A DNA stretch of 64,000 nt, taken from positions 62,001-126,000 of the forward strand of contig NZ_KI519455.1 in NCBI RefSeq assembly GCF_000482545.1, in the 5' to 3' direction. The notes beneath the pieces were generated by a model. It saw only the letters and a program-made list of their open reading frames with translations. It did no database searches and was not told the origin of the DNA. Origin of the DNA: Arthrobacter sp. 35W. Lineage in GTDB: Bacteria > Actinomycetota > Actinomycetes > Actinomycetales > Micrococcaceae. Every line of letters begins with the position of its first letter. The stretch's first letter is position 1. The position numbers were made by a program, and so were the translations under genes. Positions 56,787 to 64,000 of the stretch are shown in pieces.

Positions 56787-58382
56787 TCAGGCGGCGCGGA
56801 CCTCGATCTCGCCGGGGTTGGCGCCCTCGCTGCCGAACACGAGGTGGCGGTTAGCCACCTTCTCGGTGAAGAAGCGGTCGTGGCTGACCACCACCACGGC
56901 ACCCGGGAAGTGCAGCAGGGCCCGCTCCATGACCTGGGTGCTGGACATGTCCAGGTGGTTGGTCGGCTCATCGAGCAGCAGCACCGAGGCACCGGAGAGC
57001 AGGCACTGGGCCATGGCGACGCGGGCGCGCTGGCCACCGGAGAGGTTGCCGATCTTTTGCTTCAGGTCCGCTTCGGAGAACTGGAACATCGCCAGGAACC
57101 GGTTGACGGACTTCTTGGTGGCGGTCAGGGCCAGGCTGTCCGGCATCGCATTGACGGCGTGGCTGACCGTGTCCGTTTCGTCCAGCTCCTCCAGCACCTG
57201 GTTGTAGGAGACCATGCCGGCGCCCTTGGCCCAGGCCACCTCGCCGGCGTCGGCCAGCTCATCGCCCGTCAGCACCTTCAGCAGCGTGGACTTGCCACTG
57301 CCGTTGGAGCCCAGCACCACAATCCTGTTGCCGCGGCGGATCTCAAAGCTTAGATCAGAGAACAGCGTCTTCTCGCCATAGGACTTGCCCAGGGATTCCA
57401 CCCGGCAGAGCACATCCTTCACGTGCAGGCCGCTGTAGATCTCCGTGATGATCTGATCCACTGGCCGCGGTGTGCGGGATTTCTTGATCTTGGCCAGCTG
57501 GTTGCCCAGCGTGCGGCTGGCGGCCTTGGCGGCCTCGCGGCGGTCGGCAATGCCCTCGGCCTCAAAGGCCAGCAGCTCCGATTCGTGCTGGAACTGCGCC
57601 TCCAGGGTCTTGAGCCGGAACTGCTTGGCCACCACGTACTCGCCAAAGTTGCCCGGGTACTCGTGCAGGTGGAAGTTCTCCACCTCGATGATCCGGGTGA
57701 CGACGGCGTCCAGGAACTTCCTGTCGTGCGAGACGATGATGGCCGCGCCGCGGAAGTCGCGGAACCAGGTTTCCAGCCATTCGACACCGGCCACGTCCAG
57801 GAAGTTGGTGGGCTCATCCAGCAGCAGGACGTCGGGGCCCTCCAGCAGGATCTTGGCCAGGGCGGCGCGGTTGCGCCAGCCGCCGGAGAGCTTGTCGATC
57901 GGGCAGATGCGGTGCGCCTCATCGAACCCCAGGGTGGTCAGCACCTTGTCGATGCGGCGCGGGTAGTCCCAGCCGTCGAGGCGGTCCATGGCCTCGAACA
58001 GCTCCGACTGGCGGTGGATCAGCCGCTCCAGTTCGGCGCCGTCGCCGGAATCCACGGCAATGGCGGCATCGATGGACGCCAGCTCGGCCTCGATCGCCTT
58101 GATCTCAACAAACACGCCGTCGAGCACTTCGGTGATGGTGTGCTCGCCGTTCAGCTCGGAGAACTGGGAGAAGTACCCGATCCGGGTCCCCAGCTCCACG
58201 GAGACGGTCCCGCCGTCGGCCTCCACCTGGCCCAGGATCAGCTTGAGCATGCTCGATTTGCCGGAGCCGTTCTTGCCGATCAGGCCCACGCGGTCGCCCG
58301 GTTCCAGGCGGAAGAATGCCTCACGCAGGATCTGCGTGTTCTCGAAGCGGACGCTGACGTCGTTCAGCCTGATCAGGCTCAT
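56787..58382 (-). CDS. ABC-F family ATP-binding protein
   Basis: A 531-residue protein with two ABC domains and no membrane part. Walker A sites: 'GKNGSGKSSML' and 'GSNGSGKSTLL'. Signature motifs: 'LSGGWRNRAAL' and 'LSGGQRARVAM'. Walker B: 'VLLLDEPTNFLDVAGVEWLE' and 'VLLLDEPTNHLDMSS'. The linker between domains is about 80 residues and charged, as in ribosome-acting ABC-F proteins. It may be a translation factor or give resistance to ribosome-targeting drugs; sequence alone does not decide. Confidence 0.93.
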   Translation of the reverse strand: MSLIRLNDVSVRFENTQILREAFFRLEPGDRVGLIGKNGSGKSSMLKLILGQVEADGGTVSVELGTRIGYFSQFSELNGEHTITEVLDGVFVEIKAIEAELASIDAAIAVDSGDGAELERLIHRQSELFEAMDRLDGWDYPRRIDKVLTTLGFDEAHRICPIDKLSGGWRNRAALAKILLEGPDVLLLDEPTNFLDVAGVEWLETWFRDFRGAAIIVSHDRKFLDAVVTRIIEVENFHLHEYPGNFGEYVVAKQFRLKTLEAQFQHESELLAFEAEGIADRREAAKAASRTLGNQLAKIKKSRTPRPVDQIITEIYSGLHVKDVLCRVESLGKSYGEKTLFSDLSFEIRRGNRIVVLGSNGSGKSTLLKVLTGDELADAGEVAWAKGAGMVSYNQVLEELDETDTVSHAVNAMPDSLALTATKKSVNRFLAMFQFSEADLKQKIGNLSGGQRARVAMAQCLLSGASVLLLDEPTNHLDMSSTQVMERALLHFPGAVVVVSHDRFFTEKVANRHLVFGSEGANPGEIEVRAA

Positions 58383-58458
58383 GGCGGTGTGACTTTCTTA
58401 GGTGGGAAGGTGGTGCGGCCGCCCAGAATGCTGGCGTCCAGAAGGATCGGTGGCGGTT

Positions 58459-62236: not shown

Positions 62237-63505
62237 TCAAGGCGTGACCGGCGGAGCTCCTGCAAGCACATCGCCGACGAGAAGCTTGATGAGGTCTTCT
62301 TCATATGCCGCGACACCCACGCGGTCCATCTGCGCACCCAACTCTGGGTCCCATGGTGTCTCGGAAACCACAACCTTCGTCCCAGAACCGTGTCGAGTGA
62401 CCGCGAGGTAGTCAGCGGCGCACATTCGCCACGGCTTCGCTGCTGGAGCCGAGGCGAGCAGGGACCGGACGTGTTGCAGGCCCCTGGTATCGAAGTCAGC
62501 GCGTACCGTGACTCGCCAGCCAGCAGCGGTCAGGGCAGCTATAGCCTCGCACTCCGTCCGAGACGGCGTCCCCGATGTGCAGACCACGCGCGGCGGCGTG
62601 CTGCCAGCCCCCGAGGTCTGGATGAATCCCTGGACTGAGGCTGAGAGCACTGATGGATTCTCGGTCACGAACACCCATGAGTCTGGCGTGGAAGGGCTTG
62701 CCCACTTAATGCCCGTCAGTTCTTTCGGGGGCAGGGTTAGCGTCGCGCCGTCGGGGATCGCCCACCCGTCCGGGTGCACTCCTGTGACAATGAGCCCTCC
62801 GACCAGGTCGTCGATGTCGACGCCGACCTCCGCCCAGGCGTCCCTGGCGCGCGGTCCCGAGACGCCCATCACCGCCAGGACCAGAGCAGGCAACGGACCC
62901 TCGTCCAAAGCGTGCGGGCTACCTGGAACCAGGGTGCGGCGGTCCACTCGGTCACCTGGGGCCGGGAGCAGAAGCAGAACCTCAAGTGCCTGACCGACGA
63001 GGGCCTGGGGGTCATCAGTAGCCAGGACGCGGGCGACGCCGCCGGTCCGCAGGAGCCGCTCGAGCACCGCGTCGACATCAATCCCCAGATGTGACGGTAG
63101 GGCCTCCACCCCTGTGCGCAGCTGGTCAACTATCAGCTGTCGTGCTGCGCTAGCCTGTAGCTTCTCCCGTGCTCCGACGGCGAGTCGCCGCCTGACTGCA
63201 TGTGCCACAACCACGCCCGGAGTCAGCCCGGCCGACCGCAGCTGCAGGGTTCGGGTAAGCGTGGTGAGGTCCACTGTGCGCTTCTGCCCGGGTATCAGAG
63301 GGCGTCCGGGAATCAGTCCTGTCGCCGCCGCACGCTCCGCCGCGTCCTGTGGTGCCTTGATTGTGACCGTTCCAGTGGTCATGTCGTCGTCTCCGCGGCG
63401 GTCGGCTGCTTGGGCCACGATCTGCCAAAGCCACAACAATTCTGGGGTGAGCAGCGCCGTCAAGTCAGCGTCCGCACAGGCGCCCGAGCACAAAGAACAA
63501 GCCAT
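62237..63505 (-). CDS. jetD: Wadjet anti-plasmid system protein JetD (TIGR02679 / DUF3323-DUF2399)
   Basis: A 422-residue nuclease subunit. The N-terminus has a C-x2-C-x3-C cluster (residues 3-10) then 'LLWLWQIVAQAADRRGDDD', typical of TIGR02679. The C-terminal DUF2399 Toprim-like domain shows the Toprim glutamate Glu282 in 'VFVTENPSVL', followed by 'RVVCTSGTPSRTECEAIAAL' and the acidic pair in 'VRADFDTRGLQH' (Asp337, Asp339). In Wadjet, JetD cuts closed circular DNA that the JetABC motor has extruded. The ATG overlaps the jetC stop (TGATG); a GTG one codon earlier is an alternative. Last gene of the operon. Confidence 0.9.
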   Translation of the reverse strand: MACSLCSGACADADLTALLTPELLWLWQIVAQAADRRGDDDMTTGTVTIKAPQDAAERAAATGLIPGRPLIPGQKRTVDLTTLTRTLQLRSAGLTPGVVVAHAVRRRLAVGAREKLQASAARQLIVDQLRTGVEALPSHLGIDVDAVLERLLRTGGVARVLATDDPQALVGQALEVLLLLPAPGDRVDRRTLVPGSPHALDEGPLPALVLAVMGVSGPRARDAWAEVGVDIDDLVGGLIVTGVHPDGWAIPDGATLTLPPKELTGIKWASPSTPDSWVFVTENPSVLSASVQGFIQTSGAGSTPPRVVCTSGTPSRTECEAIAALTAAGWRVTVRADFDTRGLQHVRSLLASAPAAKPWRMCAADYLAVTRHGSGTKVVVSETPWDPELGAQMDRVGVAAYEEDLIKLLVGDVLAGAPPVTP

Positions 63506-64000
63506 CACGGCTCCTGGGCTGGGCTGATCACGTACTCGGTGTCGCCGGGGAGCTGGAGCAGGCCGCGCACCATCATCGGGAACGCAACCACGGTGCCGTC
63601 CGACCCGGCCTCAAGGTCGTGCGCGTCGATCCCATCCCATGCGCCGGGCGCGCCGTCCCACAGGTACGAGGTGGCGATCAGGTCCAGGTCGAGTTGCGCG
63701 ATGTAGCGGGCCAAGCCTTCACGTCCTTGCTCGTCGACCTCAGCGGGAACCTCGTCGAGCGGCAGCAGTCTCAGCGCCTCGGTTCCAAGCCGGTCGTAGC
63801 CGGCCGCGATCGCGGCAAGCATGGGCGCCAGTACGACGAGCCGCCTCTCACCGCCGGACAGGCCGGTGGTGCGGCCCCACTTCCGCTCCTTCTCGGGGTC
63901 ATCGGCGCGGGTCACCATGTAGTCGACGTCCACCCAGGAAGTGATGTCAACTGCATCTGCGAGACGCTCCGCCATCGTGTCCCCGTTTGCGCCGGCCAGA
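63505..64000 (-). CDS. jetC: Wadjet system SMC-like ATPase JetC (TIGR02680), C-terminal part only
   Basis: The last 165 codons of a large SMC/SbcC-like ATPase; the rest lies beyond the right edge. Visible: the ABC signature 'TTGLSGGERRLVVLAPMLAAIA', a Walker B segment 'LLPLDEVPAEVDEQGR' and a D-loop/H-loop region 'LDLIATSYLWDGAPGAWDG'. This is the characteristic end of TIGR02680 proteins (about 1,300 residues). It forms the loop-extruding motor with JetA and JetB. The frame is open to position 64000. Confidence 0.9.
   Translation of the reverse strand, partial: LAGANGDTMAERLADAVDITSWVDVDYMVTRADDPEKERKWGRTTGLSGGERRLVVLAPMLAAIAAGYDRLGTEALRLLPLDEVPAEVDEQGREGLARYIAQLDLDLIATSYLWDGAPGAWDGIDAHDLEAGSDGTVVAFPMMVRGLLQLPGDTEYVISPAQEP

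What the first reader, a model, noticed from the sequence alone, without database searches (positions are those of the whole stretch)
62237..64000. Right edge carries part of a Wadjet (JetABCD) anti-plasmid defence operon
jetD (DUF3323-DUF2399, Toprim-like nuclease with Glu282, Asp337 and Asp339) directly follows, with overlapping stop and start, the end of a TIGR02680-type SMC ATPase with a clear ABC signature and Walker B. This pairing and order are the published type II Wadjet layout, in which the complex extrudes and cuts circular plasmids. jetA (DUF2397) and jetB (DUF2398) should lie just outside.
Basis: partly seen in the sequence, partly recalled or inferred. Interest (0 to 1): 0.75.

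Follow-up and report, generated by a model that had tools for sequence, protein, structure and literature searches.

The report
Plasmid-cutting Wadjet operon with cysteine-tagged nuclease
The edge of the window holds the end of one gene and the nuclease gene of a complete four-gene Wadjet system, a known bacterial machine that destroys invading plasmids, and its nuclease belongs to a distinct branch carrying an extra, probably metal-binding, cysteine tag.

Summary
jetD (62237-63508, minus strand) overlaps the end of jetC. In the host genome jetC continues as one intact 1,406-codon frame, followed by jetB (DUF2398) and jetA (DUF2397), neighbours overlapping by four bases. It is a complete type II Wadjet operon, so the main claim is ordinary.

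What is new: the operon belongs to a well-separated branch of type II Wadjet whose JetD carries an N-terminal C-x(2-4)-C-x(3-4)-C motif plus a fixed histidine (Cys3, Cys6, Cys10, His102), invariant in 18 of 18 distinct branch members. The motif was found in 0 of 69 other JetD loci of one set and 0 of 29 of another. The branch has 100/100 support. I read the motif as a small zinc (or other metal) site on the DNA-binding half of the nuclease; metal binding is inferred.

Context: the operon lies in a variable, defence-rich locus that also holds conjugation-like genes; the 20 congeners listed lack it. Seven plasmid records carry this branch, all annotated linear, only weakly above the Streptomyces base rate.

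The parts
62237..63508 (-). jetD: Toprim nuclease subunit (DUF3323 + DUF2399), GTG start, or ATG at 63505
   Evidence: Pfam and PADLOC matches; AlphaFold2 model mean pLDDT 92.5; fold matches 8b7f, 7til and Top6A
63476..63499 (-). C-x2-C-x3-C motif (Cys3, Cys6, Cys10) at the N-terminus of JetD, branch-specific; probable metal-binding knuckle (inferred)
   Evidence: invariant in 18 of 18 distinct branch members; 0 of 69 and 0 of 29 other JetD loci; position checked
63200..63202 (-). His102 codon, candidate fourth metal ligand (inferred)
   Evidence: invariant in 18 of 18 branch members; 2 of 24 other JetDs of A2 have His there; position
62660..62662 (-). Glu282, Toprim catalytic acid
   Evidence: invariant in the 35 JetDs of A2; position
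62489..62497 (-). Asp337-Phe-Asp339, Toprim DxD pair
   Evidence: Asp337 and Asp339 invariant in the 35 JetDs of A2; position
63505..64000 (-). 3' end of jetC (SMC-type ATPase, 1,406 aa in all; continues outside the window to C2:129725). jetB (C2:129722-131065) and jetA (C2:131062-132711) follow outside the window
63847..63861 (-). ABC signature LSGGE of JetC
   Evidence: in the 12 JetCs aligned the S and the GE are invariant, the other positions vary
63751..63768 (-). Walker B LLPLDE of JetC
   Evidence: LDE invariant in the 12 JetCs aligned

Best explanation
This is a complete type II Wadjet operon that most likely restricts small circular plasmids. JetA (kleisin), JetB (KITE) and JetC (SMC ATPase) form a loop-extruding motor. 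When two motor units have reeled in a whole circle and meet, they release the Toprim nuclease JetD, which cuts the DNA. In this branch JetD begins with a short extension in which three cysteines and a histidine bind one zinc ion (or similar metal), pinning the extension onto the DNA-binding (CAP) half of the nuclease. Its most likely job is structural: to fix the N-terminus in the shape needed to dock JetD on JetABC or to hold it inactive until triggered. Shown here: gene content, order, intact frames, catalytic and ATPase motifs, Toprim fold (predicted), branch grouping, invariance of the motif. Inferred from published Wadjet work: extrusion and cutting. Inferred only: metal binding and its role.
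Against: No activity was or could be measured. All four proteins fall below the NCBIfam equivalog cut-offs TIGR02677-02680, and only JetC has a sequence match among solved structures. His also occurs at that column in 2 of 24 JetDs without the cysteines.
Confidence: 0.8

Rival explanations
1. Wadjet as above, but the cysteine motif is a redox switch: oxidation releases the metal or forms a disulphide and changes the activity of JetD, as thiol-based zinc switches do in other actinobacterial proteins.
For: A C-x2-C-x3-C plus histidine set suits a redox-sensitive zinc site; 9 of the 11 branch loci carry actinomycete labels. The comparison with zinc-dependent redox proteins is recalled, from no call.
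Against: No thiol-redox gene stood out among the neighbouring genes that I scanned (not a dedicated search). Spacing varies (x2 or x4, x3 or x4).
Confidence: 0.15
2. Wadjet as above, but the motif touches DNA or the SMC neck directly, adding a contact that sets where or when JetD cuts.
For: It sits on the half of the protein that should correspond to the CAP domain, a DNA-binding type of domain (review PMC10586767, passage).
Against: The extension is short and has no predicted helix before residue 16.
Confidence: 0.2
3. The operon is a housekeeping chromosome-organising complex (MksBEF/MukBEF-like) rather than a defence system.
For: SMC-kleisin-KITE architecture is shared.
Against: An intact nuclease gene is coupled to the operon; DUF2397 is absent from the 20 congeners listed, and the jet DNA of the window had only 32- and 24-base matches in 2 of 22 congeners; it lies near CBASS, type III restriction and STAND genes.
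Confidence: 0.05

Closest known systems
Wadjet type II (JetABCD; Neobacillus vireti nvJET; JetC of PDB 9qe0, whose link to nvJET is recalled)
   Same: JetC aligns at both ATPase ends; the same four subunits.
   Different: JetA, JetB and JetD have no sequence match to any solved chain at the E-values used; JetD has the N-terminal cysteine motif, whose absence in the N. vireti JetD was not checked.
MksG of Corynebacterium glutamicum (PDB 8b7f) and JetD of P. aeruginosa (PDB 7til), nucleases that the review calls type I
   Same: CAP + Toprim nuclease fold.
   Different: 10-15% identity; in VIA-align the aligned part starts at residue 116 of the model, so the N-terminal quarter is not covered.
EptABCD of Mycobacterium smegmatis
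   Same: An actinobacterial JetABCD whose loss raises plasmid uptake (PMC12287153 citing Panas 2014, passage).
   Different: Whether EptD belongs to this branch was not established; M. smegmatis is not among the 80 loci kept of 106 confirmed.
Topoisomerase VI A / Spo11
   Different: According to the review the JetD CAP domain lacks the catalytic tyrosine of the topoisomerases.

Membership tests
Wadjet type II | Four adjacent genes jetA-jetB-jetC-jetD in that order | tested here: met
Wadjet type II | JetA with DUF2397 and JetB with DUF2398 above Pfam cut-off | tested here: met
   197.7 bits vs 28.5; 197.1 bits vs 26.9
Wadjet type II | JetC: full-length SMC-type ATPase, intact frame, Walker A, signature, Walker B | tested here: met
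   hinge and coiled coils were not examined separately
Wadjet type II | JetD: DUF3323-DUF2399, Toprim Glu and DxD | tested here: met
Wadjet type II | PADLOC type II models are the best match for all four subunits | tested here: met
Wadjet type II | Cuts circular plasmids / lowers plasmid uptake | not testable with these tools
   needs experiment
NCBIfam TIGR02677/78/79/80 equivalogs | Curated score cut-off reached | tested here: not met
   61.4 vs 165.85; 91.1 vs 124.65; 104.7 vs 196; 288.9 vs 462.85. So kin of these families, not members
JetD branch with N-terminal cysteine motif (defined here) | C-x(2-4)-C-x(3-4)-C near the N-terminus, invariant His102, and grouping on one side of a tree branch | tested here: met
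Zinc-binding protein | Bound metal; ligands within bonding distance | not testable with these tools

The most novel reading that the evidence does not exclude
A separate branch of type II Wadjet has turned its nuclease into a metal-gated enzyme: the CCCH knuckle is a safety catch that must be metal-loaded (or reduced) for JetD to be released by JetABC, which would let the cell, or a linear replicon carrying the operon, couple destruction of circular plasmids to metal or redox state. That the seven plasmid records with this branch are all annotated linear fits a system whose carrier is immune to its own cutting.
Probability: 0.12. Interest if true: 0.7.

Novelty: new variant of a known kind. 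Interest (0 to 1): 0.4.

Why it matters
A 2023 review says that most Wadjet work so far concerned type I and that how JetD is switched on remains to be elucidated (PMC10586767, passages). A branch in which an invariant three-cysteine-one-histidine site has been added to the nuclease gives a simple handle on that question: change four residues and see whether docking, restraint or cutting is lost. The operon itself is an ordinary, complete Wadjet system.

Tried and rejected
Looked for att repeats by comparing 400 bases around the tRNA-Ala with 138 kb around it: apart from itself only matches of 12-16 bases, so no attL was found. The seven PF00589 tyrosine recombinases of the genome all lie on another contig.

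Searched viral contigs for the branch: 67 pattern matches, none a relative by tblastn. A DNA search of plasmids with a more distant Wadjet locus found nothing.

Tested whether linear carriers are a signal. Seven of seven plasmid records with branch members are annotated linear, but two of these (L157, L160) look like near copies (same N-terminus and length). A control of six Streptomyces cas3 plasmids had three linear and three circular (six of the 24 rows listed, which holds 46 records). The published base rate is 120 of 183 Streptomyces plasmids linear (PMC10482375, passage), giving about 0.08 for six of six. Suggestive only. Of the 19 non-branch records I opened six: four circular (149 kb to 1.08 Mb) and two linear, so Wadjet relatives do ride on large circular plasmids.

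Considered and rejected: a truncated or decayed operon (all four frames open).

Papers. Full-text searches bearing on a cysteine or zinc feature in JetD. One search gave four papers; I opened one (PMC10586767, passages), where the zinc passages shown concerned Rad50; the other three were seen only in the listing. One search found no paper. One search was too broad (3,501 papers, the 10 listed unrelated) and says nothing. Deep 2022, Roisne-Hamelin 2025 (Structure) and Doron 2018 are not held, so the feature could be mentioned there.

Full report
Observation. The right edge of the window holds jetD (62237-63508, minus) directly after the end of jetC. Pfam finds DUF3323 and DUF2399 in JetD and an SbcC-type Walker B in the partial upstream frame; PADLOC calls them JetD2 and JetC2. 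The window is C2:62001-126000 of a 4.66 Mb genome in four contigs. Reading beyond the edge gives jetC C2:125505-129725, jetB C2:129722-131065 and jetA C2:131062-132711, each frame open and overlapping the next by four bases. DUF2397 and DUF2398 are over Pfam cut-offs. PADLOC's best models are type II for all four. JetC carries GPNGTGKT, LSGGE and LLPLDE.

How divergent it is. NCBIfam's TIGR02677-02680 match all four proteins but below their curated cut-offs. Among solved structures only JetC has a sequence match, to the JetC of entry 9qe0 (E 1e-22); JetA, JetB and JetD have none. In a sample of 394 genomes of the class, 42 (the window's own included) had a JetD match; two besides the window's own were close (53% and 49% identity), the rest at 42% or less. 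So this is a sparse, divergent branch of a known system. PADLOC's best models for JetA2, JetB2 and JetC2 fit it closely, so relatives of this branch were probably already in PADLOC's collection.

The branch. A scan of one genome per species with a three-member JetD alignment confirmed 106 relatives, of which the best 80 were kept; eleven (L047-L057) are branch members at 41-72% identity, in Microbacterium, Streptomyces, Micromonospora, Mycobacterium lepraemurium and three metagenome bins labelled Actinomycetes, Deltaproteobacteria and Pseudomonadota. In eight of these eleven all four genes are found as open frames in the order A-B-C-D; L047 (M. ulmi) has jetB in two pieces; L051 lacks the N-terminal part of jetA, close to the end of its contig; L053 (M. 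lepraemurium) is decayed with no detectable jetA or jetB. One further member (L014/L043) came from the class search and has all four genes.

The cysteine motif. Branch JetDs start within about a dozen residues of C-x(2-4)-C-x(3-4)-C. On 18 distinct branch sequences (window, L043, L047-L052, L054-L057, and plasmid-borne L154-L159; L160, whose N-terminus equals that of L157, and L053 left out), Cys3, Cys6, Cys10 and His102 are invariant, as are Glu282, Asp337 and Asp339. L053 has the motif if read from an upstream ATG; the automatic start chosen lay downstream of it. Of the other JetD loci of the scan, 0 of 69 have the motif in their first 45 residues, or in their first 120; these 69 were gathered with branch-derived patterns, and six of them (short, doubtful start or no jetC beside them) were dropped from the tree. 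In a set gathered by whole-protein or family search, 0 of 29 loci have the motif followed by the conserved tryptophans; L045 repeats the place of L015, and L033 gave only a C-terminal piece, so 27 are informative. The same pattern finds 18 of 18 branch members. A tree of 81 JetDs puts the 18 on one side of a single branch, support 100/100, in all 200 bootstrap trees; the tool warns that many long branches meet, so joins outside and inside the branch are unsure. The Pfam model DUF3323 begins at residue 44, so the motif lies in a stretch that this model does not cover.

Mechanism. From published work: JetABC is an SMC motor; JetD is a Toprim nuclease thought to be kept inactive until converging motor units signal a fully extruded circle; linear DNA escapes (PMC10586767, passages). 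A Wadjet-II cuts naked circular DNA (PMC12647877, passage). I infer the same here. The branch-specific step, a metal knuckle on the CAP half of JetD that shapes docking or restraint, is inference.

Locus. The stretch right of tRNA-Ala(CGC) is conserved in 22 of 22 other genomes of the genus, and the ABC-F gene at window 56836-58392 in 21 of 22 (not seen in G011). I fetched the interval between the two from three congeners: it is about 16 to 24 kb there against about 44 kb here, without DNA matches to the window's interval apart from tRNA pieces, and without jet genes. DUF2397 is absent from the 20 congeners listed. Between jetA and the tRNA lie a 1,722-aa NACHT (STAND) protein, a CBASS cyclase and effector, an ATPase, type III restriction and modification genes, a coupling-protein-like gene, a replication-relaxation gene, ArdA, and the only PF07508 serine recombinase found in the genome, whose frame overlaps the tRNA. 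GC is 0.60 from jetD to the tRNA against 0.68 to its right, but 0.68 in jetABCD itself. This looks like a defence-rich integrative element or hotspot; its left end was not found.

Plasmids. Seven plasmid records (six Streptomyces, one Kitasatospora) carry branch JetDs, all with the motif and all annotated linear. Five show all four genes; CP118028 was opened only around jetD; the Kitasatospora copy has jetC in two pieces and no jetA or jetB found between it and the end of the record. Given the base rate the linear pattern is suggestive at most.

Verdict. A confirmed, complete type II Wadjet operon; a new variant by virtue of the branch-wide cysteine-histidine site in JetD.

Noticed in passing
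L044:145-7817 minus and L002:18535-18999 minus (C2:140534-148817, right of the window): Type III Mod, Res, an AAA/ABC-type ATPase and a CBASS cyclase are four genes with overlapping ends, followed by a Cap15-like 2TM effector: a restriction-modification and CBASS operon in one. A similar ATPase with weaker Res- and Mod-like matches beside it occurs in another genome (L178).
   Followed up: partly
L002:12480-17648 plus (C2:134479-139647): 1,722-aa NACHT/STAND protein, only weakly like Avs4 (41.5 bits against a cut-off of 1500), with no Pfam match before residue 342.
   Followed up: no
L044:13408-18893 and L127:244-4137 (C2:154408-164137): Coupling-protein-like gene, replication-relaxation protein, N6/N4 methylase, ArdA anti-restriction protein, an integrase-core (rve) transposase and a large serine recombinase whose frame overlaps tRNA-Ala(CGC): probably an integrative element next to the defence genes.
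   Followed up: partly
L152:16148-16184 and L153:1641-1714: In a congener (G007) 37 bases like the 3' end of the same tRNA-Ala occur a second time about 5.4 kb away, suggesting that the tRNA is an integration site in this genus.
   Followed up: partly
L053 (Mycobacterium lepraemurium): Decayed remains of a branch-type jetCD; no jetA or jetB found.
   Followed up: no
L154:10784-14967 and L156:10775-11710: On two linear Streptomyces plasmids the branch operon is followed by SbcD and SMC-family ATPase genes or by a Ku gene, all DNA-end proteins.
   Followed up: no
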